The position numbers and the translations under genes are program-made. This document shows positions 43,637 to 60,183 of a stretch of 64,000 bases of DNA, one piece after another. The stretch is from positions 62,001 to 126,000 of the forward strand of contig NZ_JADGMQ010000002.1 of the NCBI RefSeq assembly GCF_016124105.1. The letters are read 5' to 3'. Source of the stretch: Aquamicrobium zhengzhouense (GTDB lineage: Bacteria > Pseudomonadota > Alphaproteobacteria > Rhizobiales > Rhizobiaceae). Every line of letters begins with the position of its first letter. Within the stretch, counting starts at the first letter, position 1. A model generated the notes under the pieces. The model did no database searches. It was not told where the DNA came from and was given only the letters and a program-made list of their open reading frames with translations.

Positions 43637-43666
43637 TCCCCCTGCCTGGCCCCAAGGACCAAAAAT

Positions 43667-44906: not shown

Positions 44907-45902
44907 ATGTCCGGATTCAATACCAAGACGCCAAGGCGCATCCTCGTTACCGGCGCCGCCGGGTTCCTTGGCTCACATTTGTGCGATCGCCTGCTTGCGT
45001 CGGACCCTGACGTGGAGATCGTTGCGGTTGATAGCCTTTTCTCCGGTTCACGGTCGAACATCGAGCATTTGCGGAGCCATCCGCGGTTCGAGTTTCTGCG
45101 CCACGACGTAACGGTCCCGCTCTTTTGCGAGATCGATGAGATCTACAATCTGGCCTGCCCTGCGAGCCCGGTGCATTACCAGTTTGACCCAATCCATACC
45201 GTAAAGACGTCGGTCAACGGTGCACTCAACATGCTGGGCCTTGCCAAGCGCACACGTGCGAAGATCCTGCAAACCTCGACGAGCGAGGTTTATGGCGATC
45301 CGACGATCTCCCCGCAGCACGAGGGGTATCTTGGCAACGTCAACACAATGGGACCTCGTGCCTGTTACGACGAAGGCAAGCGTGTCGCCGAGACATTGTT
45401 CTATTGCTACCGCAACCTTCACGGCGTCGATGCGCGGGTGGTGCGGATCTTCAATACCTACGGGCCGCGCATGCTCCCGGAAGACGGGCGAGTGGTCTCC
45501 AACTTCATCATGCAAGCGCTGACGGGGCAGCCGATCACGGTTTATGGCGATGGATCGCACACGCGCAGCTTCTGCTACGTGGATGATCTGCTTGAAGCGA
45601 TGACGCGGGTGATGGACGCGCCGGAAAGCGACGGCTCTGCGGTTAATATCGGCAATCCGCAGGAAATCACCATCAACCAGCTCGCGTCACTTGTTATCGA
45701 GCTGACCGGTTCACGCTCAAGCATCGTGCATAAGCCGCTGCCTCAGGATGACCCGATGCAACGTCGCCCGGACATCTCGAAAGCACAGGCGCTTCTCGAC
45801 TGGAAGCCCGCGGTCGACCTGCGCGACGGGCTGATGAAAACGATCGAGCATTTTGAGGGCATTCTGATGCGGTCGGCGCAGCGCAGGGTTGCTGCAGAAT
45901 AG
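44907..45902 (+). CDS. UDP-glucuronate decarboxylase (UDP-xylose synthase type), SDR family
   Basis: 331 residues. The NAD-binding motif is GAAGFLGSH at 17-25. The catalytic set is [10 protein letters not shown] with Y154-x3-K158 (YDEGK). The UXS-type blocks [12 protein letters not shown] and [14 protein letters not shown] are present. It would convert UDP-glucuronate to UDP-xylose or to the 4-keto-pentose, as the ArnA decarboxylase domain does. The frame is open upstream to 44766, but the ATG at 44907 has a ribosome site and begins with the conserved region. It is followed after 9 bp by the second epimerase. Confidence 0.85.
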
Positions 45903-45911
45903 GTAAAGTCG

Positions 45912-46988
45912 ATGAATAAGGTAGTCCTGATCACCGGTTCGGCCGGGTTGATAGGCTCGGAGGCCGCGCGTTTCTTCTCTGCGCGCGGCTTTCGTGTTGT
46001 CGGCATAGACAATGACATGCGCGCGCAGCTTTTTGGCGCTGACGCATCGACGGCCTGGAACCGCGAGAGGCTGATCCAGGATCTGCCGAACTACGTGCAT
46101 GCCAGCATCGACATCCGAGACAGTGCAGCGCTTGAAGAGGTTTTTCGTACCTACGAGAGTGTGATTTCACTCATAGTCCATACGGCGGCCCAGCCGTCTC
46201 ACGATTGGGCAGCGCGCGATCCGCATGCGGACTTCACGATTAATGCGAACGGAACGCTGAACCTTCTTGAGCTGACGCGCAGATACTGTCCCCACGCTCC
46301 GTTCATTTTCACGTCCACCAACAAGGTGTATGGCGACACGCCCAACAGGCTACCGCTTGAAGAACTGGACCAGCGCTGGGAAGTCGCATCCGACCACCCG
46401 TATTTCCAGCAGGGGATTGATGAAACGATGTCCATCGATGGCTCGATGCACTCGCTTTTTGGGGCATCCAAGGTCGCAGCCGATGTCCTGGTGCAGGAGT
46501 ATGGCCGATATTTTGGGCTCAAGACCGCCTGTTTCCGTGGTGGTTGCCTGACCGGCCCTTCACACAGCGGTACGCAGTTGCACGGTTTCCTAGCTTATCT
46601 GATGAAGTGTGCCGCGACCGGGAAGCCCTACACCGTGTTTGGTTATGAAGGGAAACAGGTCCGGGACAACATCCACAGCGCCGACCTTATCGACGCGTTC
46701 TGGGCGTTCTACGAGGAGCCACGCTCCGGCGAAGTCTACAACATCGGTGGTGGCCGCGATTGCAACTGCTCGATGCTGGAGGCGATCGAGATCTGCGAAC
46801 AGATCACGGGCCAAAACCTCAACTGGACCTACAGCGAACAAAACCGCGCTGGCGATCACATCTGGTGGGTTTCGGACACCCGCCGCTTCCGTGCGCATTT
46901 CCCGCAATGGACGATCCGTCATGACGTCGCATCGATCCTGGAGGAGATTTACGCTGCGAATTATCGGCGATGGCTCGAGGTAGGCTGA
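45912..46988 (+). CDS. CDP-paratose 2-epimerase-like NAD-dependent sugar epimerase
   Basis: 358 residues of the extended SDR type. The N-terminus is [11 protein letters not shown] (8-18), followed by [12 protein letters not shown]. Later blocks ([33 protein letters not shown]) resemble CDP-tyvelose/paratose epimerases. The active-site motif reads F183-G-A-S-K187 where YxxxK is expected, so the catalytic Tyr is replaced by Phe. Substrate and reaction are therefore uncertain. It is cotranscribed with the decarboxylase, which suggests a nucleotide-sugar pathway for the nearby polysaccharide genes. A terminator follows. Confidence 0.75.
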
Positions 46989-47024
46989 GGCAGCGATCTA
47001 GCAGTTAAAGCCGGGGGGCGGGAG

Positions 47025-47059
47025 AGGGCGTGGCGGTTACCGTCGCGCCCTTTCTTTTG
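47025..47059 (+). terminator. Intrinsic terminator of the epimerase pair
   Basis: AGGGCG (47025-47030) pairs with CGCCCT (47046-47051), with a further CGGT/ACCG inner pairing, and is followed by TTTCTTTTG. It begins about 37 bp after the stop, in the gap to the convergent ligase gene. Confidence 0.7.
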
Positions 47060-47074
47060 CGTGTGCGGCAGAAT

Positions 47075-48430
47075 TTACCGTGCGGCGGATGAACTGCGGA
47101 TAGCTACAGCGAAGAAAAGCACCATCAACATCCAGAGCGGGTTCGACGAGATGAATATGTCGGACTCCAGATTGTTGTGCATCAGGATGAAAGCGAAGAT
47201 CGTCAGGGTGAGCCATCCCAGCCGCCCATCCACCTGGGCCAGACGCCCGGCAGCAGACAAGGCAGCAATCAGAAACGCGGTTTTCAGGGCAAAGCCCAGC
47301 AGGCCGAGATGGAGAAGCATATCGATGTAGCCATTGTGGCCGGTCGGCGAGACGCGGGCGAAGCCGAGCGTTTCGCGATACGGTATGCCGTCATAGCCGG
47401 TGCCCCAGATGGCTTCATAACCGTGCCCGAGCCAAGGCTGCCTGTCGATCAGCCTGGTCGCAAATTCCCAGAGGTCCGTGCGTCCGGTCAGGGTTGCATC
47501 TCCAAGCAGAGACGCGTTGAGCGACTTGAAGGTCCACGCGCCACTGCCGGCGCCGATGAAAAAGATCAGCGTAGCCAGACCAACGCCGACGGCTACCAGT
47601 AGAGCGGGCGACAGCCTCATGCGCCTGGCAGCATAAAGTAATACAAGTCCAATGGTGGGGGCCAGGATCGCAAGGCCGAGTGACGTCTTGGATTGGGACA
47701 AGACGAGGAAAAGTGGCGCAGCCGCGATCATCATCACGGCGATGCAGCGCTGTAACAGTCCACCGAAGGTCACATGATAGAGACCAACGAACAGGAGGAC
47801 GCCCGACACCCAACCAAACACATTCTTTTGTGGGAAAATCCCGGTGTGGCCGATCGGCCCTGCGGGCTGTGTCAGAACCGAGATGAGGTTCAGGACCGTC
47901 ACCGCGATCATCACGACCAGAAGCGCTCGCATCATCACGTGAAAGGAGTGAGCTGAATAGACAGCAAGGATCAGCGTCGTCGTGATGATGCAGAGCAGTA
48001 CTCCTCGCATGAGGGTCAGCTTGGGAAAGAGGCTCCACGCCGCGGAAGCTACTGCCAGAACAAGGATGACAGCGGCGGCCGCCATCCCCAGATTGTCGAT
48101 TGGTAGGCGCCGGTATGATCCAGTCGACAGGCTGCAGACCAAAGCCAGCATGAAGAGCAGTGGATAGGCGATCATCTTCAGCGGCGAGCGCTCCCCCGCA
48201 TCTGCCGGAAGGGGCGCCATCCAACCCATCTGCAGCTCAAGCGGAGAATACTCTCCGCCACCAAAGGCAAGCGGCCAGACGATAAGGACGTAACCCAGCA
48301 TCATCGCGGGGATCAGCGACCCCAACTGTCCGCCAAGACGGGCCAGCGAATCTTGAAGTGCGACCGATACCTGCCGCACAGCCGCGTGTCGTTCGAGGCG
48401 CGCAAGAAGGGTTGGGGAGCGCGTGTTCAT
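47075..48430 (-). CDS. O-antigen ligase/polymerase-like membrane protein (Wzy_C)
   Basis: 451 residues with about twelve membrane segments. A large periplasmic loop is followed by GHNGYIDMLLHLGLLGF, the typical Wzy_C motif of ligases and polymerases. Either it polymerises repeat units (Wzy) or attaches chains to a carrier. In this locus with Wzx, GumC and an initiating transferase, polymerase is the likelier role. The ATG at 48430 overlaps the GT2 stop by 4 nt. Confidence 0.85.
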   Translation of the reverse strand: MNTRSPTLLARLERHAAVRQVSVALQDSLARLGGQLGSLIPAMMLGYVLIVWPLAFGGGEYSPLELQMGWMAPLPADAGERSPLKMIAYPLLFMLALVCSLSTGSYRRLPIDNLGMAAAAVILVLAVASAAWSLFPKLTLMRGVLLCIITTTLILAVYSAHSFHVMMRALLVVMIAVTVLNLISVLTQPAGPIGHTGIFPQKNVFGWVSGVLLFVGLYHVTFGGLLQRCIAVMMIAAAPLFLVLSQSKTSLGLAILAPTIGLVLLYAARRMRLSPALLVAVGVGLATLIFFIGAGSGAWTFKSLNASLLGDATLTGRTDLWEFATRLIDRQPWLGHGYEAIWGTGYDGIPYRETLGFARVSPTGHNGYIDMLLHLGLLGFALKTAFLIAALSAAGRLAQVDGRLGWLTLTIFAFILMHNNLESDIFISSNPLWMLMVLFFAVAIRSSSAAR

Positions 48431-49395
48431 CGCTCGATGCCCTCTTCCAGCGGCTCTAAAAGGTCCAGCCACTCGGGAGCGCGCGGTTTAGACTTGGCTG
48501 CACGCAGTGTGCTCAGAACTTTGTTGGCAAGCGGCAACCCAACGATTGAGCGGAAGGCGTAAAAGGTGGAGCGGCCAAGAGGCATTCCCGCCTGCATTCC
48601 TCGAAATAGAGCGAAAGGTACCAAGACCGGATGGGTGAACGCACTCAGTTCTGAGGCGATGGCCGCGTTGATCAGCGCTTGGCCCCGCGATGTTAAATGC
48701 TGCCGGGCGTAGCGCTGAAACGCTAGGAAGTCTTGCCGCGAACGATAGCGTCTGGATGCGCGCGAACTCCGGCTGTCATCGACGTAGACGGCCAGGAGAT
48801 CGTCCAGAACCGCAATGTGTTGGGCCGCGCGGAGGCAGTCGTACACAAAGGCCTGATCCTCCAGCATGCGGATCTCGGGCCGAAACCGGACGTTCTGGAG
48901 GATGAGGCGGCTGACGCACAAGACGTTGATGTTGTAGTAGTCGCCGCCACGGAAGGTGAATTCCTCCAATGGGGTTTGTCCATCCCACCGGCGCGCCGGA
49001 AGCTCGGACCATGAAATGCGCCCATCACTCTTTCCATGAAGGCGGAATTGCCGATGGAGCAGGACGCCCGGTTGCTCTCGCTGGATCGTGCGTGCCAGAA
49101 CTTCCAGCTTGTGAGGAAGATAGATGTCGTCGGCATCGAGAAACACGATGTAATCGCCGCGCGCCGTGTCGAGGCCGCGATTGCGGGAGGTCGATGCTCC
49201 CAGATTGGTCGGGTTGGTCAGGCACGTGATCCGCCTGTCTTCCAGATCTGCGCATACGATTGCTGCCGGCTCATTCGACGCGTCATCGATGACGATGATT
49301 TCGAAATCGCCATTGGTTTGATTGAGGCAGGAGCGTAACGCGATCCGCAACGTGTCATTGCTGTTGTGCGTTGGGATGATGATCGAGAACATCAT
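48427..49395 (-). CDS. Family 2 glycosyltransferase
   Basis: 322 residues of the GT-A fold. Motifs: FSIIIPTHNSNDTLRIALRS at the N-terminus, VIDDASN, and the DxD region VFLDADDIYLPHKLEVL. It acts on the cytoplasmic face, adding a sugar to a lipid-linked unit. The frame is open upstream to 49788, but that part is an antisense shadow of the flippase gene. The ATG at 49395 overlaps the flippase stop by 4 nt. Donor and acceptor are unknown. Confidence 0.88.
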   Translation of the reverse strand: MMFSIIIPTHNSNDTLRIALRSCLNQTNGDFEIIVIDDASNEPAAIVCADLEDRRITCLTNPTNLGASTSRNRGLDTARGDYIVFLDADDIYLPHKLEVLARTIQREQPGVLLHRQFRLHGKSDGRISWSELPARRWDGQTPLEEFTFRGGDYYNINVLCVSRLILQNVRFRPEIRMLEDQAFVYDCLRAAQHIAVLDDLLAVYVDDSRSSRASRRYRSRQDFLAFQRYARQHLTSRGQALINAAIASELSAFTHPVLVPFALFRGMQAGMPLGRSTFYAFRSIVGLPLANKVLSTLRAAKSKPRAPEWLDLLEPLEEGIER

Positions 49396-50669
49396 GATCG
49401 GGATCTTCCGACCTGCATGTCGGAGCCGCGCAGTCCAACGATCAGAAACGAGATCAGAACGCCAATCTGTACCGTCGCCATCACCACGAGCGCGGCTGAG
49501 ATGTCGAAGCCGAAAGCCAGCACCGCCAGGAGAAACGCGGTCGATGCCGCAGCCGCCATGCCGATCATCGCAACTGTCCTGAAGCGGTGATGAGCGTTCA
49601 AGAAGACCACCAGGGACCAGTTGCTCAATATGAGGAGGCTCACGGCTCCCCACCCGGCAACGAGCAATCCGATGTGCGGGAACTGCGAGTAAAACCGGTT
49701 CTCGATCAGCGGCCAGAATAGGCAGACCGCGCCGGCCCAGATCGACGTTGCGGCCACCATCAGGCCGATGCCCGCGCCCGTAAGCCACTTCGCCTCTTCA
49801 ACTTCTCCGGCTTGGACAAGTCCTGCAATGCGAGGTTGTGCGATACGCTGCCACGCAGAACCCAGAAGTTGGAGCGGAGCCCAGAGAATGCGACCTGCCT
49901 CGACGAGGCCAAGCTGATCGACGCTTCGGAACAGCGGGATGGTCAGCACGTGCAATCGGGTCTGCGCCTCGTTCGTTGCGGAGTTGATTACCGACCAGCC
50001 GGCTCCCGGAAAGGCAGAATGATAGAGCCCGAGAATATTCCCTCTTGGGGCTGGCTCTGCCGACTGACCGCGGAACATCCAGAGAGCGATTGAGGTGGAA
50101 AGAGCAGAAGCTAAAAGCGCAGCCGTTTCAGTTCGACTGATATAGAAAAGGACCGAGTAAGAGATCAGCAGCAGAACGAAACTTGCTGCTCCGAGCCTGG
50201 CTGCAGATACGACGTCAGCCTCAAGATAGAACAAATTACGCCGTGTCTCGCGCGCGAGCCATGCAGCGGAAAATGCCGCGCCCGCTGCCGCAGTCACCAC
50301 ATCACCCGACGCCCAAAACCCGACTGCGGCGATGATGAGCGCGCTTGCGAGCCTGAAACGTAGATCAACCGCGTGTAGGATGGCGATTTTCTCGAGGCGC
50401 TGGGCATCAGCCGTTTGTCGGACATGCACCAGAAGCGGAATTCCTATCGCGCCATAGTGGAGGCTCGCGGCGATGAGTGTGCAGCCGGAAATGAGTGCGA
50501 ACCGCCCAAAGGTCGCGGGGTCTGTTCCCACGATCAACACGGCGGAGAGGATCAGGGACGCAAGGCTGTGCAGCCCCTGGTCGAGGAATGACAGCGCGAC
50601 CGCACCCACGCCGAACGGACCGTCCGGCGTGGCCTTCTTGCGGGGAATGTCGAGCTGGGTGCTTGCCAT
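49392..50669 (-). CDS. Wzx-like polysaccharide flippase (MATE/MVF-type oligosaccharide transporter)
   Basis: 425 residues with about twelve membrane helices, e.g. FALISGCTLIAASLHYGAIG and GIGLMVAATSIWAGAVCLFW. No soluble domain is visible. It would flip the undecaprenyl-linked repeat unit to the periplasm for Wzy. It precedes GT2 and the ligase in an operon with the WecB-type gene. The family call rests on hydropathy and context. Flippases are too variable to name the substrate. Confidence 0.78.
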   Translation of the reverse strand: MASTQLDIPRKKATPDGPFGVGAVALSFLDQGLHSLASLILSAVLIVGTDPATFGRFALISGCTLIAASLHYGAIGIPLLVHVRQTADAQRLEKIAILHAVDLRFRLASALIIAAVGFWASGDVVTAAAGAAFSAAWLARETRRNLFYLEADVVSAARLGAASFVLLLISYSVLFYISRTETAALLASALSTSIALWMFRGQSAEPAPRGNILGLYHSAFPGAGWSVINSATNEAQTRLHVLTIPLFRSVDQLGLVEAGRILWAPLQLLGSAWQRIAQPRIAGLVQAGEVEEAKWLTGAGIGLMVAATSIWAGAVCLFWPLIENRFYSQFPHIGLLVAGWGAVSLLILSNWSLVVFLNAHHRFRTVAMIGMAAAASTAFLLAVLAFGFDISAALVVMATVQIGVLISFLIVGLRGSDMQVGRSRS

Positions 50670-50684
50670 ATTGCGCCCGCAGAC

Positions 50685-51491
50685 TCAGACGTAGTTCTGG
50701 CGGCCGGTGGGCGCGCGATCTTCGTCCGGTCGAAATGCGCCGGGAAAGGCCCATTGGCGGGCGATATTCCAGCAAAACAAAGGGTTCAGGAACAGATAGC
50801 GCCGCCACAGCCGTGTCGGTTCGCACAGCAGGCGAAACAGCCATTCCAGTCCTCGGTCCTGCATCCATGCTGGCGCCTGTGGCTGAGTTCCAGCATGGAA
50901 ATCAAACGCCGCACCGACTGCTATCACCGGGCAGGAGAGGTCTTCGGCGTTTTCGAAAGCGAACACTTCCTGGCGTGGACAGCCGAGCCCGACGAAGACG
51001 ATGCGTGCCCCGGTCTCCTTGATCGCAGCGATGACCTCGGAGTTTTCAGCGCTGTCCGCCATGCGAAAGCGCGAGGTTGCGGTCCCGACGATACGAATGC
51101 CTGCAAACTTCTCCCGCAGGTTTATCTCAAGCCGCTCCATCACCTCGGGGCGGCTGCCATAAAGGAATATCGGCACACCCTCACGTGCCGCGGCTTCGCA
51201 CACCCGAAGCATCAGGTTTGGCCCGTAGACGCGATCTTTCAGTCCAGTGGCATGCAGAAGATTGAGCGCCCAACGAACCGGCTGGCCGTCAGGAACCACC
51301 ATATTCAAATGATTAAGCCGGTAGCGATGGGAGGGATCTTGCACACCTGTCATCACGCCGTGGACAGCCAGGGCGGTGACAGAGAACGGCTTTCCGGAAT
51401 TCGCTGCGTCCATTATACGCGTTACAGCGCCCTGATAGTCGGTGGCGTTAACCCCAACCCCGAGAATCGGCAGCTTTTCGCCACGTTTCAT
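50685..51491 (-). CDS. WecB/TagA/CpsF-family glycosyltransferase
   Basis: 268 residues. Family blocks: [54 protein letters not shown] and [20 protein letters not shown]. The Asp in the VVPDGQPV block is a conserved acidic residue of the family. Members transfer ManNAc(A), glucosamine or glucose to a lipid-linked sugar. It is the first gene of the operon with the flippase, GT2 and ligase, 15 bp before the flippase, and divergent from gumC. Confidence 0.87.
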
Positions 51492-51668
51492 TGTTTAATC
51501 CTCGCGTCATGCAGAGGATTCCATGCAACGAACGTGCCAGTGCCTGGTGATCCGAATTGACACGCTGGCGGGTCGTGGCATGCGGCTTGCTGAGGGGATT
51601 TATGCAGGTGCTCCTAACCGGCCTTCAGTCGGTGGGGTGACACAATCTGGCACAGGACACATTTCGCG

Positions 51669-53192
51669 ATGCGCAGATTCCGGCTGGACAGAGACGACAT
51701 TCGGCCTCCAGAAAAGGTCGAACTGATTGACTATCGGGGCTTCGAAACCACCGAGCGATCTGAGGCACCGTTTGTCTCCGACGTTCGCGTTGTATGGTCG
51801 GCCGTTTCAACACGTGCTCGGCTGGTGGCAGCGTGCACTATCGGTGCGCTCTTTCTTGCGTTGGCCTATATCTGGATCGTGCCGCCCGTCTACGAGGCGA
51901 CCGCCGATGTGTTGATCGATCCGAGACGGCGCGCCGTCTTTGACCAGGAGATTGTCCCCGGAGGCATGGGGCAGTCATCACTTGGGGCAGACACCTTCCT
52001 GCTGGACAGTCAGGTCAATGTCATGACCTCGCAGCCCATCTTGCGACAGCTGATCACCGAGCTGAATCTGCTGGATGATCCGGATGCGGTCGCAAGCTCA
52101 AGCAGTTCGATCTTTCGCGATTTCGCACGTCTGCTGTTGCGTGGGCCACGAGCCGCTTCGACTGCAGGGCTGAGCGATGAAGACAAGGCCGTGCGGGCGC
52201 TGCAAGAGGACGTTGAAGTTTACCGAAAGGGGAACACCTACGTTCTTGGCGTGACCGTCAAATCGAAGGATCCAATCCAGGCTGCTGACATCGCCAACAA
52301 GCTGACTGAACTCTATATCGCAGATCTCAGCCGTAACACGCGTTCGCAGATTTCCGAGGTGGAGGAGCAGCTTGGCGGACGTCTTGAGGAGCTTCGGGAA
52401 GCCGCGCTGGCATCGCAGCGAAAAGTTGAAGAATACCGGGCCCAAAATGGTCTGTTGAGTGCCGAACGCGTCACCGTCGTTGAGCAGCAGCTGCGTGACC
52501 TCAACCAGCAGCTCAGCGTCGTGTCGACGACCGCGAGCGCCGCGAAGTCGCGTTGGGAAGAAGTGTCTCGCATGCGCGGGCAACCGGTGGAACGGGTTCT
52601 GGCCGCAGGTTCGCTAGACTCGCCGCATCTTGATTCCTTACGCCAGCAATACTCGTCACTGACTTCACGGGAAGCCTCGCTTTCAGCCACGCTGATGCCG
52701 CGCCATCCGTCCTTGCAGGCGCTGAGAGATTCCAAGTCGACTGTTCAGGCCGATATCAAGCGCGAAGTCGATCGGTTGATCGCGCGCTACCAGGTAGAGC
52801 ATGATGTTGCGGCAGCAAACGAGCGCGCAATCCGTCAGCAGATAGCACAGCTGGAGGCGGCGACCGTCGCGACCAATCAGGCGAGTGTAGAGCTGCGGGA
52901 TCTCGAGCGCCAGGCCGCATCCGACGCAGCCATTTACGAGCAGTTCCTCGTGCGGTCGAAGGATGCACGCGAACAGGTCAATCTCCCGAACGATGTGGCA
53001 AGGGTGATTTCGCAAGCGAGCCCCGACTTCACGCCTAGCTGGCCGAAGCCGTTCCTGCTGCTTGGCGCGGCACTGGTTGTAGGCCTCGGTCTAGGGCTTT
53101 GCCTTGCGCTGGCAATGCAGCTTTTTGGTGGTGCGGGGCGAGCAACCTCGGATAAGCCGTCCTCCGGATCGCTTCTTGGTGGCGTACGCTAA
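51669..53192 (+). CDS. GumC/Wzz-type polysaccharide chain-length/export protein (no kinase)
   Basis: 507 residues. The first membrane helix is 52-71, followed by the Wzz domain (PVYEATADVLIDPRRR). A long periplasmic coiled coil occupies about 200-430, and a second membrane helix about 461-482. The C-terminal 25 residues are short and carry no Walker motif or Tyr cluster, so the BY-kinase domain of ExoP/Wzc is missing. It regulates chain length and docks to an outer-membrane exporter, but no wza gene is visible in the window. It overlaps the next gene by one base. Confidence 0.88.
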   Translation: MRRFRLDRDDIRPPEKVELIDYRGFETTERSEAPFVSDVRVVWSAVSTRARLVAACTIGALFLALAYIWIVPPVYEATADVLIDPRRRAVFDQEIVPGGMGQSSLGADTFLLDSQVNVMTSQPILRQLITELNLLDDPDAVASSSSSIFRDFARLLLRGPRAASTAGLSDEDKAVRALQEDVEVYRKGNTYVLGVTVKSKDPIQAADIANKLTELYIADLSRNTRSQISEVEEQLGGRLEELREAALASQRKVEEYRAQNGLLSAERVTVVEQQLRDLNQQLSVVSTTASAAKSRWEEVSRMRGQPVERVLAAGSLDSPHLDSLRQQYSSLTSREASLSATLMPRHPSLQALRDSKSTVQADIKREVDRLIARYQVEHDVAAANERAIRQQIAQLEAATVATNQASVELRDLERQAASDAAIYEQFLVRSKDAREQVNLPNDVARVISQASPDFTPSWPKPFLLLGAALVVGLGLGLCLALAMQLFGGAGRATSDKPSSGSLLGGVR

Positions 53193-54895
53193 TGGCTGAG
53201 GTCGTTCGGGACTTCCGTACCAGCGACAAGTCAATGCCCGGGACCAATTTCGCTGCCGTTACGGTTCTCTGCGTCACGGCAGCAATCGCTTCTGTTCTCC
53301 TCACGCTCGTGCGCGAACTGCCGATCGGCACCTATTATTGGGACATCTACTTCTTCGCGGACGCAGCTCATCGCATCCGTGGAGGAGAGGTGCCGCATCA
53401 GGACTTCTTCCTCTCCGTCGGCGCCCTGCCGTACTACCTCTATGAATTGCTGTGGCGCGTGTGGCCCGATGGTCAACCTCTGCTTCTCGGGCAATATTCG
53501 CTGCTGATCGTCACTTTGCCGCTGATGCTTGCGGTGGTTCTTTCTGCCGGTGTTTCCGCTGGGAGGGTTGTAGCAGTCGTCCTGCCGTTTGCGTTCTTCA
53601 GCCTTGCGCCGATTAACTCCAACGAATTCGTTTCCGTGCCGTCGGTCGATGGATACGGACTCTACAATCGGCAGGCAGGGCTGCTCCTCTATGTCCTTGC
53701 ATCCGCTTTGGCGCTGGTAAGGCGGCACCTGGTCCTTGGCACGATTGTCGGATTGAGCGCAGCAGCGCTGTTCTTTCTGAAGATTACCGGCTTTGTTGCG
53801 GGCGCTGGTTTCGTGGGCGTGGCCGTCCTCGCGGGGAGGCTTGGTCCCAAGGCGATCGCTGCCGGTCTCGTCGCCTTCCTGGTCCCGCTCGCGCTCGTCG
53901 AACTCGGTCTCGGCATCGTCTCGCTCTACATCGCCGATGTCTTGGCGATGCTGTCCCACAATAGCGGCGGCTTTATCGGGAGATTTTTGCGTCTGGTCTC
54001 GCATGAGCTTGACGTTCTGGCCCCGGCCGCTGTCTTGTGCGGCGCGCTCGCCTATCTGGAGCGGGGCAGGCTCGTTGCTGCACTGACGACACCTTTTCCG
54101 GAAAATGTCACGGGGCTTTTCTCGCTGACATCCGTCCAGCTCGCGTTGATGACGGGATTCGCGATCCTGTTCGAAATGCAGAACACAGGGTCCCAGGAGT
54201 TCATCTACCTGTGGCCGCTGTTATCCGGGCTTCTCATCCCGGGACATCAACTGGAGGGGCGCTGGCGGGTGGTCATCATTACGCTTGTCGCGGTCACTGC
54301 TTTGTCGTTGATCACGAAGACAGTGCACAGGCTCGGGAGAGCGCTTGCGATCATGCCGACCCAGATCAGTCTTGACCTGCCTGAGCTGGGCATACTGAAC
54401 AGTGTTTCAGCTCGGGACGACTATATCCGGCGCGCGGAAAAACTGCGCGCACACTTCGCGGACAACGTCAATGGATACCGAACATTGATCAGCGAGGGCG
54501 AAGATCCTTCATTTCTGTATTACACGACGCCTGACACCCAAATTCTTTACCTCATCGATGTTGCTGAAGGCATCAAAGCGATCAGGCACCATGAAGAGGC
54601 GACCGGAAACCATTACGCCAGTCTGGCGGGATTGGATTACGTGGATCCGCTGCCCATGCTGATGGGGCGTCAGGGTGCCAAGGCGATGCCAATGGGACTT
54701 GATCCGACCCGCGGTTATCCGGCTGCTCGCCACGATGACTATCGTGCCGGTCTTGCACAGGTGGACGCAATTCTCGAACCGATCTGTCCGCTGGTTGATC
54801 AGCGAGCCGCGATCCGGGCCATTGCTGAGCCCGTCCTGGAAGGACGGCGAAAGGTTCAGATCGACCCGTGCTGGGTGCTTTACGAAAAGCCGTGA
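53192..54895 (+). CDS. GT-C fold membrane glycosyltransferase, ArnT/PMT-like
   Basis: 567 residues with about ten membrane segments and a soluble C-terminal part (about 400-567). The first external loop has the GT-C style acidic and Gly/Pro pattern WDIYFFADAAHRIRGGEVPH followed by QDFFLSVGALPYYLYELLW. It resembles the PMT/ArnT motif D-A-x-x-G-x-x-PYxDF. Such enzymes take sugar from a polyprenyl-phosphate carrier and add it in the periplasm. Paired with gumC in a two-gene operon. Acceptor and donor are unknown. The call is motif-based with moderate certainty. Confidence 0.6.
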   Translation: MAEVVRDFRTSDKSMPGTNFAAVTVLCVTAAIASVLLTLVRELPIGTYYWDIYFFADAAHRIRGGEVPHQDFFLSVGALPYYLYELLWRVWPDGQPLLLGQYSLLIVTLPLMLAVVLSAGVSAGRVVAVVLPFAFFSLAPINSNEFVSVPSVDGYGLYNRQAGLLLYVLASALALVRRHLVLGTIVGLSAAALFFLKITGFVAGAGFVGVAVLAGRLGPKAIAAGLVAFLVPLALVELGLGIVSLYIADVLAMLSHNSGGFIGRFLRLVSHELDVLAPAAVLCGALAYLERGRLVAALTTPFPENVTGLFSLTSVQLALMTGFAILFEMQNTGSQEFIYLWPLLSGLLIPGHQLEGRWRVVIITLVAVTALSLITKTVHRLGRALAIMPTQISLDLPELGILNSVSARDDYIRRAEKLRAHFADNVNGYRTLISEGEDPSFLYYTTPDTQILYLIDVAEGIKAIRHHEEATGNHYASLAGLDYVDPLPMLMGRQGAKAMPMGLDPTRGYPAARHDDYRAGLAQVDAILEPICPLVDQRAAIRAIAEPVLEGRRKVQIDPCWVLYEKP

Positions 54896-54926
54896 TGGGC
54901 GGAGCGCTGGCGGTTCAACCTGGTCT

Positions 54927-55907
54927 TCAGGTCGCGAGTGTAGCACTGTCCGCTTCAAAGGATGGCGTGCGATCGTGCAGCCGACCGCGGCGCAGCTCAT
55001 GTGCATGCTCCCGCATCGTCATGACGCGGTGTCCCTTGGCGAGGTCGGAGAGAACCATATCGATGATGGCGAGCTTTCGCGCCGAAGGGAGCCGCATGCC
55101 CGGAAAACGCGACAGGATGTGGAGATCGTCGCAGCCAAGAAAATCGAGCGGATGCAGCAGCACCGAGGGCTGGACACCGAAGAGGCGGCACGCAGACAAT
55201 GCGGCTTTCCAGTAAGCAGTCGCAATCGCTCCTGAATGCGTTGCTAGAAACGACAGATAGGTCAGATGAAAGGGCGCACGGATCAGCGGTGTCGTGGTCA
55301 CGGGAATTTCGACCATTCGTCCCGTGGACAGGTTCCATTCATACGGATTGATGGGACGAAGCCCGTCGGCCAGCGAACCGAACAGCAGGGAACGCTTCTT
55401 GCGTTCCTCCGCCGACAGATCAGAGCGCGTGAAATAATAGGCTCGGGCAAGCGGCCCCAAAAACGTCGGCAGCGTCGAGGCGTCATATTCATATCCACGC
55501 TCGCACAGTGTTTCGAGAAGTGGCGTGGACAGGCAGAAGCTCGGGCCGCGAAACCCGATAGTGCGCTGGCCCGTCGCGTCGCCGATGGCATCTTCAGCTT
55601 GCGCAATCTCGGCACTCATCGCCTCACGCGAACTTCGCGAGAGCCACGGCTCATGGTGAAACGAGTGGTTGGCGATCTCGTGGCCGGCCTCCGCGATGCG
55701 GCGAAGCGCCTGTCGGTTCTCCTTCAAGGCTGCATCCTGCCCAACGATGAAAAAGGTGATTTTCAATCCATGATGATCAAGTCGATCAAGGATGCGAGGC
55801 GTGACGAGATCCAGATAGGAGGGGAAAGTCTCCCAACCAGCGATCCCCGCCGTTTTCATATAGGTCCAGAGGTTGTCCAGATCGAGCGACAGGCTGGCGG
55901 GGCGCAT
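54927..55907 (-). CDS. Polysaccharide deacetylase, NodB family
   Basis: 326 residues. Motif 1 is SLDLDN with D9/D11. Motif 2 is NHSFHH with H81-x3-H85. Motif 3 is GFRGPSF with R120. All metal and catalytic residues are present, so it should remove N- or O-acetyl groups from a polysaccharide or its precursor. No signal peptide is visible, which points to action in the cytoplasm on lipid-linked intermediates. The start at 55907 follows TGAGGA by a good distance. The longer TTG start is rejected. It is the last gene of the operon starting at 60002. Confidence 0.85.
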   Translation of the reverse strand: MRPASLSLDLDNLWTYMKTAGIAGWETFPSYLDLVTPRILDRLDHHGLKITFFIVGQDAALKENRQALRRIAEAGHEIANHSFHHEPWLSRSSREAMSAEIAQAEDAIGDATGQRTIGFRGPSFCLSTPLLETLCERGYEYDASTLPTFLGPLARAYYFTRSDLSAEERKKRSLLFGSLADGLRPINPYEWNLSTGRMVEIPVTTTPLIRAPFHLTYLSFLATHSGAIATAYWKAALSACRLFGVQPSVLLHPLDFLGCDDLHILSRFPGMRLPSARKLAIIDMVLSDLAKGHRVMTMREHAHELRRGRLHDRTPSFEADSATLAT

Positions 55908-55915
55908 AACGTTCC

Positions 55916-56548
55916 TCAAAAAGCGTTGCGGTAAGCGCTGGCTGCGAAAAGAGTCATCAGCAAGATACGGATGTCGAACCAGAACGACCTGCGTTGCAGA
56001 TATTCAAGATCGTGGGCGACGCGGTGCTTCATTTTCTCAAGCGTGTCGGTTTCGCCACGAAATCCTTTGACCTGGGCCCACCCCGTGATGCCGGGAAGCG
56101 TATCGTAGCGATCCCAGTAGCGGTCGACACGGGGAGCAAACTGTTCATCCAGCGCGACCGGATGCGGCCGCGGACCGACCAGCGACATGTCGCCAAGAAG
56201 CACGTTGAGCAGCTGAGGCAGTTCATCAAGATTGACACGGCGGAGGATGCGACCCACCCGGGTGATCCGCTCATCGTCTCGCATCGCCTGACGAAACTCG
56301 TCGTTGTTCTCGTCTCGCATGGTGCGGAATTTGTAGATGCAAAAGCGCGTGCGCCCGACGCCATAGCGCTCCTGCCGGTAGAACACCGGCCCCGTGCTGT
56401 CGATACGGATTGCGATGGCGACGAGCGCCAAAAGCGGAGCGAACACCACGAGCGCAAGAAGCGCGCCGACGATGTCGAAAGCGCGTTTGGCAATCGGGCT
56501 GGAGCGTGGCAGTGGCCGCGCATATTCGACTGTGTGGCCTGTCCTCAT
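55916..56548 (-). CDS. Initiating sugar transferase (polyprenyl-phosphate hexose-1-phosphate transferase)
   Basis: 210 residues. One membrane segment (about 22-45, FDIVGALLALVVFAPLLAL) precedes the catalytic domain: RQERYGVGRTRFCIYKFRTM, LRRVNLDELPQLLNVLLGDM, SLVGPRPHP and YDTLPGITGWAQVKGFRGET. It is the short monotopic form, like ExoY and PglC, without the CoA-like domain. It starts synthesis of the repeat unit on undecaprenyl phosphate. The ATG overlaps the upstream stop by 4 nt. Confidence 0.92.
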   Translation of the reverse strand: MRTGHTVEYARPLPRSSPIAKRAFDIVGALLALVVFAPLLALVAIAIRIDSTGPVFYRQERYGVGRTRFCIYKFRTMRDENNDEFRQAMRDDERITRVGRILRRVNLDELPQLLNVLLGDMSLVGPRPHPVALDEQFAPRVDRYWDRYDTLPGITGWAQVKGFRGETDTLEKMKHRVAHDLEYLQRRSFWFDIRILLMTLFAASAYRNAF

Positions 56549-56955
56549 CTTGCTGCTACTTCGACATGCTGAGCGCCGCTGGTCTCCTCGGCCGGAGACT
56601 CGTGATTGGCGGAGGCGATCAGGGAAACACCGGCAATAACAAGGGCAGCCCCGAAGCCAGCCTTGAGCGAAAGCGGATCTCCGAAAAAGACCACGGATGC
56701 CGTCGTTATTCCGACCATCGACAGGGAAATGACGAACACATAGGACATCATCAGGCTGAGGTCTCGCAGAGCGAGTAGATAGCACCCCAGAAGAAGGACA
56801 CATGCCATGCCGCCTGCCCACAGATAGGGATTGACGGCGAAGCGCAGCAGCGTCTCGAAGGTGCGTTCCTGCGGGAACGCACCCATTGCCAGCTTGAACA
56901 TGACGTTCGACGTGATGTTCGAGAGCACGGCGATGATCAGGAATATCCAGGCCAT
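56545..56955 (-). CDS. SMR/EamA-like small membrane protein, possible lipid-linked sugar flippase
   Basis: 136 residues with four membrane helices and a hydrophilic tail. The helix SLMMSYVFVISLSMVGITTA and a final AGFGAALVIAGVSLIASANH resemble EmrE/ArnE-ArnF. Proteins of this size in sugar loci can flip undecaprenyl-phosphate-linked sugars (as ArnE/F are thought to do) or export drugs. Context favours the former. The ATG at 56955 is used because the longer frame runs through the FAD gene. Translationally coupled on both sides. Confidence 0.65.
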   Translation of the reverse strand: MAWIFLIIAVLSNITSNVMFKLAMGAFPQERTFETLLRFAVNPYLWAGGMACVLLLGCYLLALRDLSLMMSYVFVISLSMVGITTASVVFFGDPLSLKAGFGAALVIAGVSLIASANHESPAEETSGAQHVEVAAR

Positions 56956-56959
56956 GTTT

Positions 56960-58327
56960 CTATTCCGCGGGGATGGCAAGAGGGGGATTGTTGTTCGCAG
57001 CGTCGGGTAAGGCCGGTGCTGCAGCCAGTCGCTGGAGCTGCGGCACGGCGCGATCAGCGAGCCCGATCGCCTCGTCCACATTGAGATTGCCGTTGATGAT
57101 CTGTGCCGAATTGACGATGTGAAGGCCGGGAACAGATGTCTCCATCGGAGGCACTGCCTTTGAATAATTCAGGGCCTGAACCGCCATCACATTGCGCGCC
57201 CGCGAGACGCGGAATGCCACGACATCGTCATCGGTGATATGCGGGTACATGCGCTTCAGATTGCTGATGCAATTTTCACGCAACACTTCCTCGCTCTCAT
57301 CGAAAAGCGGATGATCTGCCGGGAGGTAGTGCGGCAGGTAGACGAGGCTGAGGCCGTTGAAGGTCTCTGGATCGACCACTGCCGTCATCTCGATGACGCC
57401 CGTGAACGGTACCGTCTCGTCCGCGACATAGGTCAGGTATCGACCTCTGAGCGGCTTTTTGAGGACCACCGACGCGCAGACAACGCCTTGATATCGAAGG
57501 GCGTCGAGCCGATCGCGCTCATGCTGTGTCAGGGCGGCGCACATGCGAGCCGCATGATCGCCTGGAACGGTTACCACCACACGATCAAACGTATCGGTTC
57601 CAACTGATGTGCGAACACTGATGCCGTGCGGGGACTGCGAAATTTCGCGAACCGGCGCGCTTTCTCGGCAGATTACTCCGCGGCTTTCGAGATCAGCGAC
57701 CAGCGTATCGATGATGCGCTTGTATCCGCCTGTGACGTAGCCGAACATCTCCTTCTCGATACCGGCCCGGCGCGCGCTGTAGAAGCGGTTGATCACCGAC
57801 CAGATGAAAGAGGCTGAGACGATCTTGTGGTTTTCGCCGAGCTTGGCGCGCAGGAGCGGCTTCCAGATGCGCTCATAGGTGCACTCGCCAGACAGCTTTT
57901 TAAGCCAGGCAGCGACAGGTATGCTCTCAAGCGCAACGCCGTTTTTCAGGCGGGACGCGTAGAGGATTGTGAAGGCGAGCCGAGCCTTGTCGATCAGACC
58001 AAGAGGCGGAAAACGCAGGAAGTCGATCGCGTTGTTCAGTGGATGGAACCGGCTATTCTCATAGAAATCGGTCCGGGTCGTGCGCCAGTTCATATCGTCG
58101 GCCAGCCCGATATCCTTCAACAGATCGCGCATGTGCAGGTCGGACATCAGGGTGACGTGATAGTGCCGATCCCAGGTGACCGGCCCGACCGTCCACGCGT
58201 CCGCCAGCCCGCCGAAGCGGTCAGACGCTTCCAGGATTGTGATCTCTCGGTCTTGCCTTGCCAGCTTGTGCGCCAGGGCCAGCCCCAGCATTCCTCCACC
58301 GACAATGCACCAGCGTTCACGAGCCAT
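56960..58327 (-). CDS. FAD-dependent oxidoreductase of amine oxidase/UGM-like fold
   Basis: 455 residues. The Rossmann start is CIVGGGMLGLALAHKLA, then ILEASDRFGG (FAD contact). The C-terminal FAD block is VPGLHIVNSAQIINGNLNVD EAIG-type. The overall plan is that of protoporphyrinogen oxidase/amine oxidase proteins, and related polysaccharide-locus proteins include UDP-galactopyranose mutases. The exact substrate is not determined. It is tightly coupled, its start lying inside the end of the fused deacetylase-GT2 gene. An ATG at 58342 is an alternative, but the one at 58327 has GGGAG at the right distance. Confidence 0.72.
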   Translation of the reverse strand: MARERWCIVGGGMLGLALAHKLARQDREITILEASDRFGGLADAWTVGPVTWDRHYHVTLMSDLHMRDLLKDIGLADDMNWRTTRTDFYENSRFHPLNNAIDFLRFPPLGLIDKARLAFTILYASRLKNGVALESIPVAAWLKKLSGECTYERIWKPLLRAKLGENHKIVSASFIWSVINRFYSARRAGIEKEMFGYVTGGYKRIIDTLVADLESRGVICRESAPVREISQSPHGISVRTSVGTDTFDRVVVTVPGDHAARMCAALTQHERDRLDALRYQGVVCASVVLKKPLRGRYLTYVADETVPFTGVIEMTAVVDPETFNGLSLVYLPHYLPADHPLFDESEEVLRENCISNLKRMYPHITDDDVVAFRVSRARNVMAVQALNYSKAVPPMETSVPGLHIVNSAQIINGNLNVDEAIGLADRAVPQLQRLAAAPALPDAANNNPPLAIPAE

Positions 58328-60002
58328 ATTGCGAACTCCCATTTGCCGGCGATGGAATGGACGTGGAGAAAGAGCTTTCGCCGCGCCGCTCAGTAACCAG
58401 ACGGCGGATAAGTCCCAGATGATTGCGGATCACCCGCAAGACCTTCATCTTCGACTGACCGATCAGGCGAGTTTCCAGAACAGCCGGGAATTCGACGATG
58501 TGCGCCTTGGATTGATCCAAGCGCACGAAGATCTCCATGATGCCCATGAAGCCTTCGTCATCGAGCTTCATTCCCAGCATCTTCGAGCGGCGATAGACGC
58601 GGAAGCAGGCCGTGTAGCTTGAGAAGGCGTGATTGAGGATGCGCTGGTAGATCATGCACACGCCCTTGGAGAGGGCGAGACGCCATGCCGGCACGTTCAT
58701 CACTCCGCCATTGCGGTGATAAGGAGACGCCTGAACCATGTCGACGTCTTGCTTGAGCAGCGGGATCATCTCGGCAAGCAGGTGCGGATCGAACGAGCAG
58801 TCGCAATCGATGCCGCAGACAATCTCATCCTTGGCGGCGCGAATGCCCGTCATTGTCGCTGCGGCGATGCCGCGATTGGTCTTGTGACGGATCAGTTGAA
58901 CGTCGTCGCGCCTGCCGAACAGTTCGTTCAGCTTTTCCCAGGTGCCGTCCTTGCTACCGTCATCGACGAAGACGTAGGAGAACTTATAGACGTCGGCATT
59001 GTCCCGAGCGACCGACGCCAGCGTGCTCGCAAGGTAGGGGAGTGTCTCCTCCTCATTGTAGCACGGAGTGACGATAGTCACGGACTTCACGTCGCGCGCG
59101 CTGGAGTGAGTATCAATCCTGATCGGAACTGTCGTGGAGGGGACACGGGCGGGCGCCTCCTCGATAGGAAACTCCAATGTCTCGGCGATGCCGCGGAACG
59201 AGTAGCGCTCGAGCCAGGTTTCGATGCGCGCGCGCATCTCGTCCAGATTTCGGTACTGGCGCATGCGCGAAAGCCGCGTGGTAGCCGAAACGCGAGGCTG
59301 CTCGGGGTCCAGTTCCCAGGAGTGAAAATAAAAGTGCCAGGGCGCGTCATTTTTCGCGTGCCACGACGTGACGCGGTTTTCATGAAGCGAACGCGGCAGC
59401 TGGCGCATGTAATTTCCGCCCGTGACCGGATATGGCACGCCGAGCAAGGTGTCCGAGGAAAGCGGAACCTCCATGATCGACCAGCCTTCGCCCTTGATTT
59501 CATGCGTCCTGCGCAGATCAGGCCGGCTGATGAAACGCGCACCAAACGGACGCAGGCTCGAATCGTACTTGACCCCTTCCTGTGCCAGCATTCGGTAGGG
59601 TTCGACGTCATCGGCAGGTAAGGAGCCCTCGGCTATGCGATAGCCGATGATTTTCTTGCCCGTCGCATTTTCGATCACGTCACGGGAACGCCGGAAGTCA
59701 TCGCGCAACTCGTTGAGGCTCATCTGGCTGAAATTGCGGTGCAGATAGCCTTTGCTCGCGACTTCATGGCCACGACGCGCGACCTCCGCCAACAAGTCCG
59801 GGTTCTGCTCCGCCAGCCAGCCGACAACGAAGAAAGTGGCCTTGGCGCCATGACGATCGAGCAGATCGAGCGTCGATAGCGCAGATTTTTCAACGCGACG
59901 CTCGAAACGGGGCCAGTAGCGGTGAGGTATCACCTGACGCATTGGCGCGACCTGGAAGTAATCTTCCAGATTCACGGAAAGAATATGTTCCTGTCGATGC
60001 AT
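58317..60002 (-). CDS. Fused NodB-type deacetylase (DUF3473 type) and DPM-synthase-like GT2
   Basis: 561 residues, two domains. Residues 1-280 are a polysaccharide deacetylase of the PEP-CTERM/XrtA-locus type: NLEDYFQ at 11-17, GHEVASKGYLHRN at 78-90, GYRIAEGS at 120-127, HSWELDPEQPR at 227-237. Residues about 307-545 form a GT2 domain of the dolichyl-/undecaprenyl-phosphate sugar type: CYNEEETLPYL, FVDDGSKDGTW and the DxD D399-C-D401. No membrane tail is visible. The first metal His of the deacetylase is Lys84, so that half may be inactive. It is the first gene of an operon with FAD, SMR, sugar transferase and deacetylase. Confidence 0.85.
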   Translation of the reverse strand: MHRQEHILSVNLEDYFQVAPMRQVIPHRYWPRFERRVEKSALSTLDLLDRHGAKATFFVVGWLAEQNPDLLAEVARRGHEVASKGYLHRNFSQMSLNELRDDFRRSRDVIENATGKKIIGYRIAEGSLPADDVEPYRMLAQEGVKYDSSLRPFGARFISRPDLRRTHEIKGEGWSIMEVPLSSDTLLGVPYPVTGGNYMRQLPRSLHENRVTSWHAKNDAPWHFYFHSWELDPEQPRVSATTRLSRMRQYRNLDEMRARIETWLERYSFRGIAETLEFPIEEAPARVPSTTVPIRIDTHSSARDVKSVTIVTPCYNEEETLPYLASTLASVARDNADVYKFSYVFVDDGSKDGTWEKLNELFGRRDDVQLIRHKTNRGIAAATMTGIRAAKDEIVCGIDCDCSFDPHLLAEMIPLLKQDVDMVQASPYHRNGGVMNVPAWRLALSKGVCMIYQRILNHAFSSYTACFRVYRRSKMLGMKLDDEGFMGIMEIFVRLDQSKAHIVEFPAVLETRLIGQSKMKVLRVIRNHLGLIRRLVTERRGESSFSTSIPSPANGSSQYGS

Positions 60003-60183
60003 GTTGCCACTCCCATTTGCGACCAGGCTGTCGTTTGGCCTGATCGCCTTCTTGATGGTTCAAGCAAGGGTCATGCCAGTGATGGGGTGTTTCAGTTTGA
60101 GGCACGCTGATGAGGAGCAGGTTTATCTTGGTATTGAATCGGTTTAGGGATTGGGTTGGAGCTTCGCACGGAGGAGGAAAAGC

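What the first reader, a model, noticed from the sequence alone, without database searches (positions are those of the whole stretch)
44907..60002. Arn-like lipid-linked sugar modification set inside a polysaccharide locus
The locus holds functional counterparts of several Arn parts. They are a UDP-GlcA decarboxylase (ArnA C-terminal type, 44907), a DPM-like GT2 that would load undecaprenyl phosphate (ArnC) fused to a deacetylase domain (ArnD fold, 58317), an SMR-like membrane protein (ArnE/F type, 56545) and a GT-C transferase (ArnT fold, 53192). There is no visible aminotransferase or formyltransferase, so the sugar is probably not Ara4N. An FAD oxidoreductase coupled in the same operon may modify the sugar. 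I know of no described pathway with this exact set, and propose a periplasmic branch-modification system for the polysaccharide made by the Wzx/Wzy-like genes.
Basis: inference. Interest (0 to 1): 0.72.

Follow-up and report, generated by a model that had tools for sequence, protein, structure and literature searches.

The report
Widespread lipid-linked amino-sugar transfer gene cassette
A small gene set found in several bacterial phyla appears to load an amino sugar onto a membrane lipid, trim it, carry it across the membrane and attach it to surface polysaccharide, starting with an enzyme fused to what looks like a dead deacetylase.

Summary
The genes are real. The idea of a lipid-linked sugar module survives; two of its four 'Arn parts' do not.

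(1) The fused gene (FUS, 58317-60002) is a DPM-synthase-like GT2. Its deacetylase-like domain has lost one Asp and one His of the CE4 motifs in 38 of 38 domains covered.

(2) The decarboxylase at 44907 is a UDP-xylose synthase, not ArnA-like, and was found in none of 41 related loci.

(3) The membrane protein at 53192 probably has a GT-C fold (low-confidence model). The SMR protein lacks the EmrE-type glutamate.

(4) FUS+FAD+DAC2 is a conserved cassette: 23 of 28 FUS loci with enough flank hold both partners, 5 neither, across four phyla. A clade of four adds SMR right after FAD; others add epimerase, 3-amino-sugar genes, other flippase-like and GT-C-like genes.

Best reading: a Gtr/Arn/Dpa-like extracytoplasmic glycosylation module for an N-deacetylated amino sugar. 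The flavoenzyme's step is unknown. Eight searches of open-licence papers found no description.

The parts
58317..60002 (-). FUS: fused protein, pseudo-deacetylase (CE4/DUF3473-like) + DPM-type GT2
   Evidence: full-length relatives
59175..60002 (-). N-terminal CE4-like domain of FUS (residues 1-276); first Asp of the DxED motif and first His of HxxxH replaced
   Evidence: Asp11 0 of 38, His84 0 of 38; 9 of 9 unfused XrtA-type domains keep both
58383..59090 (-). C-terminal GT2 domain of FUS (residues 305-540), with DD, DxD and RxxGxSK
   Evidence: DPM synthase 5mlz 1.6e-24, ArnC 9bhc 3.5e-12 over the whole domain; conservation
56960..58342 (-). FAD: flavin oxidoreductase, PRK07233/NF005560 family, phytoene desaturase / protoporphyrinogen oxidase-like fold
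   Evidence: (444 bits, cut-off 252)
56545..56955 (-). SMR-like four-helix membrane protein, candidate flippase
   Evidence: (ArnF 2e-6, below cut-off)
55916..56548 (-). PHPT: polyprenyl-phosphate hexose-1-phosphate transferase, short form (Bac_transf), likely initiating transferase of the Wzx/Wzy unit
54927..55907 (-). DAC2: second CE4-type deacetylase with intact Asp and HxxxH, no TM segment by hydropathy
   Evidence: (Asp 23 of 23, HxxxH 24 of 24)
53192..54895 (+). GTC: GT-C-like membrane protein, candidate transferase of the lipid-linked sugar
   Evidence: relatives found only in L051 and L052
51669..53192 (+). Wzz-like chain length determinant
50685..51491 (-). WecG/TagA family glycosyltransferase
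49392..50669 (-). Wzx-like polytopic protein (no Pfam family above cut-off; named from context and 8 hydrophobic segments)
48427..49398 (-). GT2 glycosyltransferase
47075..48430 (-). Wzy/O-antigen-ligase-like protein
   Evidence: Wzy_C 2e-13
45912..46988 (+). SDR epimerase/dehydratase; relative next to wecG in Enterovirga L052
44907..45902 (+). UDP-xylose synthase (UXS type); not tied to the cassette
   Evidence: not found in 41 related loci

Best explanation
The operon FUS-FAD-SMR-PHPT-DAC2 together with the GT-C gene is a lipid-linked sugar module of the same logic as Gtr, Arn and mycobacterial Dpa systems, set inside a Wzx/Wzy polysaccharide locus. Proposed steps: (1) the GT2 half of FUS moves an N-acetylated amino sugar from UDP (UDP-ManNAc or UDP-GlcNAc in the window; 2,3-diacetamido sugars in loci that carry the 3-amino-sugar genes) onto polyprenyl phosphate on the inner leaflet; its N-terminal domain is a non-catalytic deacetylase relative that binds or positions substrate. 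(2) DAC2, an intact and probably cytoplasmic deacetylase, removes an N-acetyl group (the role of ArnD or NaxD). (3) FAD, a phytoene-desaturase/PPO-like flavoenzyme, makes a redox change on the lipid-linked sugar or its carrier. (4) SMR (in other loci an AglD/TIGR00374-type protein) flips the lipid. (5) The GT-C protein transfers the sugar to the polymer or repeat unit. Shown here by homology and conservation: the kind of each part, the loss of motif residues in the fused domain, conserved linkage and correlated divergence. Inferred: every substrate, the order of steps, the role of FAD, flipping, and the acceptor.
For: DPM-type GT2: best solved match DPM synthase 1.6e-24, ArnC over the whole domain, RxxGxSK aligned; Arg 35, Gly 36, Ser 33, Lys 33 of 36 aligned sequences. 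DAC2 motifs intact, 23 of 23 and 24 of 24. GT-C: VIA rows 1-33 are GT-C-superfamily chains (recognised from titles and recall), top Z 11.7, ArnT Z 9.2, rmsd 5.5 over 285 residues; first other row Z 6.0 over 61 residues. SMR TM1 has Asn where efflux pumps are recalled to have Glu, 4 of 4, and sits right after FAD in window, L051, L052, L067; an unrelated flippase-like gene follows the GT-C-like gene in 5 loci. Linkage: 23 of 28 FUS loci hold both FAD and DAC2, 5 hold neither. Profile: in class samples of 385 genomes (taken as the same draw, same handles and tallies), full-length FUS, strong DAC2 (E<=1e-80) and FAD at 47% or more fall in the same 3 genomes. Distance matrices correlate, r 0.93/0.80/0.82, 0 of 2000 permutations. 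WecB epimerase in 16 of 41 loci; aminotransferase + 3-dehydrogenase-like + acetyltransferase all three in 16 of 41; FUS and aminotransferase in one ORF in L060 and L083.
Against: No biochemical data. The GT-C model has mean pLDDT 47.6, Foldseek alone is not significant (best E 0.24), the tool warns that Z under about 13 can be a common arrangement for helical proteins, and profile comparison with two GT-C-like groups of other loci found nothing. Not every locus shows a GT-C: the candidate in L082 is an RNase E/G, that in L064 matches nothing. FUS, FAD and DAC2 show no TM segment, while many DPM-like enzymes have one (recalled). 5 of 28 loci lack FAD and DAC2, so these are not obligatory partners of FUS. 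SMR profile scores are far below every family cut-off. The window has no WecB or 3-amino-sugar genes in the locus; the one WecB relative found in the genome lies elsewhere. A metal-independent hydrolase activity of the fused domain is not excluded.
Confidence: 0.6

Rival explanations
1. The GT2 of FUS is an ordinary cytoplasmic transferase that extends the pyrophosphate-linked repeat unit begun by PHPT; DAC2 deacetylates that unit; SMR and GT-C are incidental members of the locus.
For: PHPT lies between SMR and DAC2 in window, L051 and L052 and downstream of the GT-C-like gene in L054, L055, L057; FUS has no TM segment; part-length matches to EpsD, PgaC and chondroitin synthase exist.
Against: Among the solved structures only DPM synthase and ArnC match the whole GT2 domain, with RxxGxSK (alignments of five of 15 hits shown); SMR or another flippase-like gene and GT-C-like genes recur in loci without PHPT.
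Confidence: 0.25
2. The cassette makes a free glycolipid or modifies an isoprenoid lipid rather than the polysaccharide: FAD resembles phytoene desaturase and hydroxysqualene dehydroxylase, and GT2 + deacetylase recalls amino-sugar lipid pathways.
For: FAD fold closest to phytoene desaturase 5mog (Z 33.9); HpnE match 2e-33, below cut-off; relatives of the window's Wzx or Wzy were found in only 3 of 41 loci (L051, L052, L067), a weak test since these proteins diverge fast.
Against: Window, L051 and L052 sit inside Wzx/Wzz loci and L067 has a Wzy relative near; GT-C-like genes imply a lipid-linked donor used outside the membrane.
Confidence: 0.12
3. A true Ara4N (Arn) pathway in altered order.
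For: GT2, deacetylase, SMR and GT-C are parts that Arn also has.
Against: The decarboxylase is UXS type; no aminotransferase or formyltransferase among the 16 proteins scanned; partner genes elsewhere point to N-acetyl hexosamines.
Confidence: 0.02

Closest known systems
Three-component extracytoplasmic glycosylation systems (GtrABC; pentofuranose systems with GT136; passages of PMC11127046 read)
   Same: Polyprenyl-P charging enzyme, flippase and GT-C that adds side sugars in the periplasm
   Different: Charging enzyme fused to a pseudo-deacetylase; extra deacetylase and flavoenzyme in the same operon; amino sugar inferred as cargo
Arn pathway (ArnC, ArnD, ArnE/F, ArnT; recalled apart from the family models)
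   Same: DPM-type GT2, deacetylase-fold step on the inner leaflet, SMR-like proteins, GT-C
   Different: No ArnA/ArnB chemistry seen; the deacetylase does not score as ArnD; one SMR gene only; flavoenzyme; no ArnT family match by sequence
Francisella FlmF2-NaxD-FlmK galactosamine transfer to lipid A (recalled; only a search listing seen)
   Same: Polyprenyl-P-HexNAc made, de-N-acetylated, then moved by a GT-C
   Different: Different deacetylase family (recalled), no fusion, no flavoenzyme, acceptor lipid A
Mycobacterial DPA pathway (DprE1/DprE2, Rv3789, Emb/Aft; passage in PMC11127046)
   Same: Enzymes change a polyprenyl-P sugar, an SMR protein is the proposed flippase, GT-C enzymes transfer
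   Different: DprE1 is a flavoenzyme of another fold (recalled); pentofuranose from PRPP; no deacetylase
XrtA-system polysaccharide deacetylase (TIGR03006/DUF3473)
   Same: Homologous to the N-terminal domain of FUS (236 bits)
   Different: Score below the 276-bit cut-off; Asp and His of the CE4 motifs lost; fused to GT2

Membership tests
Arn (Ara4N) pathway | ArnA-type UDP-GlcA oxidative decarboxylase | tested here: not met
   44907 protein: UXS1 375 bits, ArnA about 104 bits; NCBIfam ArnA 112 bits, cut-off 777
Arn (Ara4N) pathway | ArnB aminotransferase and ArnA formyltransferase in the locus | tested here: not met
   None among the 16 proteins scanned against Pfam; the whole genome was not searched for them
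Arn (Ara4N) pathway | ArnC-type polyprenyl-P GT2 | tested here: met
   Same kind of domain (5mlz 1.6e-24, 9bhc 3.5e-12); not an ArnC equivalog (59 bits, cut-off 529)
Arn (Ara4N) pathway | ArnD deformylase | tested here: not met
   Fused CE4-like domain lacks motif residues; DAC2 scores 16 bits against the ArnD model, cut-off 382
Arn (Ara4N) pathway | ArnE/ArnF flippase pair | tested here: inconclusive
   ArnF is the best family (28 bits, cut-off 99); one gene, not two
Arn (Ara4N) pathway | ArnT-like GT-C | tested here: inconclusive
   GT-C fold indicated, ArnT Z 9.2, model confidence low; no sequence family match
Three-component glycosylation system | Enzyme that charges polyprenyl phosphate | tested here: met
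   By homology only
Three-component glycosylation system | Flippase | tested here: inconclusive
   SMR-like protein without the TM1 Glu; activity not testable here
Three-component glycosylation system | GT-C transferase encoded with the set | tested here: inconclusive
   Rows 1-33 all GT-C but Z 11.7 at most and pLDDT 47.6; gene adjacent in window, L051, L052; PMT_2 above cut-off in six other loci
Three-component glycosylation system | Side sugar added to the polymer in the periplasm | not testable with these tools
   Needs chemistry
SMR drug efflux pumps | Glu in TM1 (EmrE Glu14, recalled) | tested here: not met
   Asn at that place in 4 of 4 (placement by eye); best EmrE match E 0.08
XrtA polysaccharide deacetylase TIGR03006 | Score above curated cut-off and CE4 motif residues | tested here: not met
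   236 against 276.2 bits; Asp11 and His84 in 0 of 38 domains of the fusion family, 9 of 9 unfused ones keep both
NF005560/PRK07233 FAD family | Score above curated cut-off | tested here: met
   444 against 252 bits; the model is named only 'hypothetical protein'

The most novel reading that the evidence does not exclude
An undescribed pathway found in several bacterial phyla in which a DPM-type synthase carrying a pseudo-deacetylase loads N-acetylated (often 2,3-diacetamido or manno-configured) amino sugars onto polyprenyl phosphate, and a dedicated deacetylase plus a phytoene-desaturase-like flavoenzyme then remodel the sugar while it is lipid-linked, before GT-C transfer. This would be lipid-stage redox editing of an amino sugar by a flavoenzyme fold that I know of in no such role.
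Probability: 0.3. Interest if true: 0.75.

Novelty: new variant of a known kind. Interest (0 to 1): 0.55.

Why it matters
If right, it adds an unnamed branch to the lipid-linked extracytoplasmic glycosylation systems, present in phyla whose surface glycans are little studied. It gives a concrete case of a pseudo-deacetylase welded to a polyprenyl-phosphate sugar synthase, and places a flavoenzyme of unknown substrate in a testable pathway. Records not marked as MAG include Aminobacter sp. J41, Denitrobaculum tricleocarpae R148 and Pelagibius sp. Alg239-R121.

Tried and rejected
Rejected: the fused domain as working CE4 deacetylase; the decarboxylase as ArnA-like or tied to the cassette (the closest relative L051 is cut before the matching place, so it is untested there). 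No full fusion in the plasmid collection (17 records match at 1e-20, none over more than 55% of the query) and no pattern match in viral contigs.

Led nowhere: the profile of 3 FAD sequences against solved structures gave none at 1e-8; profile comparison of the window GT-C with two GT-C-like groups of other loci gave nothing; the window GT-C was found in none of the other 384 class genomes at 1e-8; literature searches listed no paper on this cassette. Passages of two papers were read, PMC11127046 and PMC1569441 (which names PF01522 deacetylases among genes near the PEP-CTERM/EpsH system); no paper was read whole. The intended neighbourhood control with loci L006-L034 and L037-L045 is worthless, as those loci are under 4 kb; the class-wide profiles stand in for it.

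Limits: the loci come from one scan with two peptide patterns made from 3 sequences (103 stretches, 44 loci). 39 hold FUS at E<=1e-60; L090 is split in two ORFs, L091 is cut, and L092-L094 match one half only. The 38 domains with scored motif residues include the window and four loci where the fusion itself is cut or split (L087, L088, L090, L091); L081 and L082 lack the region and were left out, and L084 and L085 (cut at the contig start) were never in that set. L089 lacks the first DAC2 motif. L081 and L088 carry the same MAG name, and L065 and L074 are near-copies, so loci are not all independent. Most named loci are MAGs.


Full report
What is there. The minus-strand operon runs FUS (58317-60002), FAD (56960-58342), SMR (56545-56955), PHPT (55916-56548), DAC2 (54927-55907), with overlaps of up to 26 bases and gaps of up to 8. 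Convergent to it on the plus strand are Wzz and the GT-C candidate (53192-54895).

FUS. The C-terminal half is a GT2 of the polyprenyl-phosphate-sugar-synthase type: its best solved relative is a DPM synthase (1.6e-24) and ArnC matches over the whole domain, with RxxGxSK aligned to both; the motif as a mark of these enzymes is recalled. The N-terminal half is homologous to XrtA-type deacetylases, but the first Asp of the first motif is Asn, Val, Ala or Ser (38 of 38) and the first His of HxxxH is Lys, Arg, Gln, Leu, Tyr or Cys (38 of 38); nine unfused XrtA-type domains keep both. The 38 include four loci in which the fusion itself is cut or split. A solved CE4 relative, 3rxz, has His where the window has Lys (alignment). 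Which residue is metal ligand and which is base is recalled from the CE4 literature. The domain therefore most likely does not work as a CE4 deacetylase, although a metal-independent activity cannot be ruled out.

DAC2. The separate deacetylase keeps Asp (23 of 23) and HxxxH (24 of 24) and has no TM segment by a simple hydropathy scan, so an intact, probably cytoplasmic deacetylase is at hand. This is the part that could play ArnD.

FAD. A member by score of NF005560 (444 bits, cut-off 252), a family named only 'hypothetical protein'. The model from 24 sequences (mean pLDDT 87) is closest to phytoene desaturase (Z 33.9, rmsd 3.2, 434 residues) and protoporphyrinogen oxidases (Z about 33), with monoamine oxidase A at 31 and UDP-galactopyranose mutase at 29. 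A shared fold shows no function. Its step is unknown.

SMR and GT-C. SMR matches ArnF best (2e-6) but far below cut-off. All four relatives share Asn in the TM1 position where efflux pumps are recalled to carry Glu (position matched by eye). The GT-C model is poor (pLDDT 47.6, 3 sequences), yet the first 33 rows of the structural re-ranking are GT-C-superfamily chains as far as titles and recall tell (GPI mannosyltransferase, ALG3, AftA, ArnT, PMT, PimE, OST; top Z 11.7), and the first other row has Z 6.0 over 61 residues. Against this, no Foldseek E-value is significant and the tool warns about Z under 13 for helical proteins. An invariant Asp follows TM1 in the three relatives, as PMC11127046 describes for GT-C enzymes (passages read).

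Conservation. One scan of named species genomes with the FUS alignment gave 44 loci, 39 of them with FUS, in Alpha- and Gammaproteobacteria, Planctomycetota, Myxococcota, Acidobacteriota, Gemmatimonadota and Desulfobulbaceae. Of 28 loci with at least 5.9 kb after FUS, 23 carry both FAD and DAC2 and 5 carry neither (L059, L060, L083, L084, L086); in 22 of the 23 they run in the same direction as FUS, in L085 they do not. Both Acidobacteriota loci with enough flank (L059, L086) lack them. Three accessory sets recur. Type A: aminotransferase, UDP-GlcNAc-3-dehydrogenase-like GFO protein and hexapeptide acetyltransferase (all three in 16 of 41 loci; identities from L058 only). Type B: WecB upstream and a GT-C-like protein without a Pfam family above cut-off and, in five loci, an AglD/TIGR00374 flippase-like protein. 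Type C: SMR right after FAD in window, L051, L052, L067, a fully supported clade (100/100). In L060 and L083 FUS and the aminotransferase lie in one open frame, which ties the GT2 to an aminated sugar. WecB occurs in 16 of 41 loci.

GT-C-like partners. By similarity to five reference proteins they were seen in 16 of 41 loci (four of the references come from these loci). PMT_2 is above cut-off in six (L058, L089, L074, L077, L079, L085). The other tested candidates are unsettled (L054, L055, L062/L048, L064, L067, L068 and others, no Pfam above cut-off) or wrong (L082, an RNase E/G).

Co-inheritance. In class samples of 385 genomes, taken as the same draw because handles and tallies agree, 38 had some FUS match at 1e-30 but only 3 the full length; DAC2 at E<=1e-80 was in the same 3, with one further weak match at 7e-21, and FAD at 47% identity or more in the same 3, with 8 more genomes at 26-32%. 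In a family sample of 151 genomes only the window's own had a full match; the best other was 1.2e-18. Distance matrices of the three proteins over 24 loci correlate (0.93, 0.80, 0.82; 0 of 2000 permutations as high); shared ancestry of the host genomes adds to this and was not separated.

Mechanism. I read the set as a lipid-linked sugar module: loading by FUS, de-N-acetylation by DAC2, a redox step by FAD, flipping by SMR or its substitutes, and transfer by GT-C. Cargo in the window is probably an N-acetylhexosamine; one WecB relative was found in the genome, away from this locus. Confidence is about 0.6 for the module, much lower for the FAD step. The main rival is that FUS extends the Wzx/Wzy repeat unit.

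Known and new. The logic is known from Gtr, Arn, Dpa and pentofuranose systems (PMC11127046, passages read). New, as far as eight searches of open-licence PMC papers show, are the pseudo-deacetylase/GT2 fusion and its conserved flavoenzyme and deacetylase partners.

Noticed in passing
L060:9827-13054 and L083:9842-13057: One open frame holds pseudo-deacetylase, GT2 and a DegT-type aminotransferase (1075 and 1071 codons from the first start), in two planctomycete MAGs; fused or coupled.
   Followed up: partly
L058:17091-18023: A UbiA-family protein above the cut-off for decaprenyl-phosphate phosphoribosyltransferase follows DAC2 in a planctomycete cassette, itself followed by an ORF that looks like a methyltransferase by eye and a PMT_2 GT-C.
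   Followed up: partly
window 42899-44545: Two LuxR-type regulator genes in tandem stand before the polysaccharide locus; possible regulators of it.
   Followed up: no
window 60151-61347: A GFO/IDH/MocA oxidoreductase gene divergent from FUS is 84% identical in Aminobacter J41, also beside and divergent from FUS; only weakly like the type A sugar dehydrogenases.
   Followed up: partly
L050:9928-10698: A stand-alone GT2, 34% identical to the FUS GT2 half, follows an ORF that begins like a WecB-type epimerase (by eye) in an unusual biosynthetic cluster of another alphaproteobacterium.
   Followed up: no
L105:6991-8151 (own genome, contig 5): The one WecB relative found in the genome (41%) lies with no gene similar to the cassette references within the 15 kb looked at.
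   Followed up: yes
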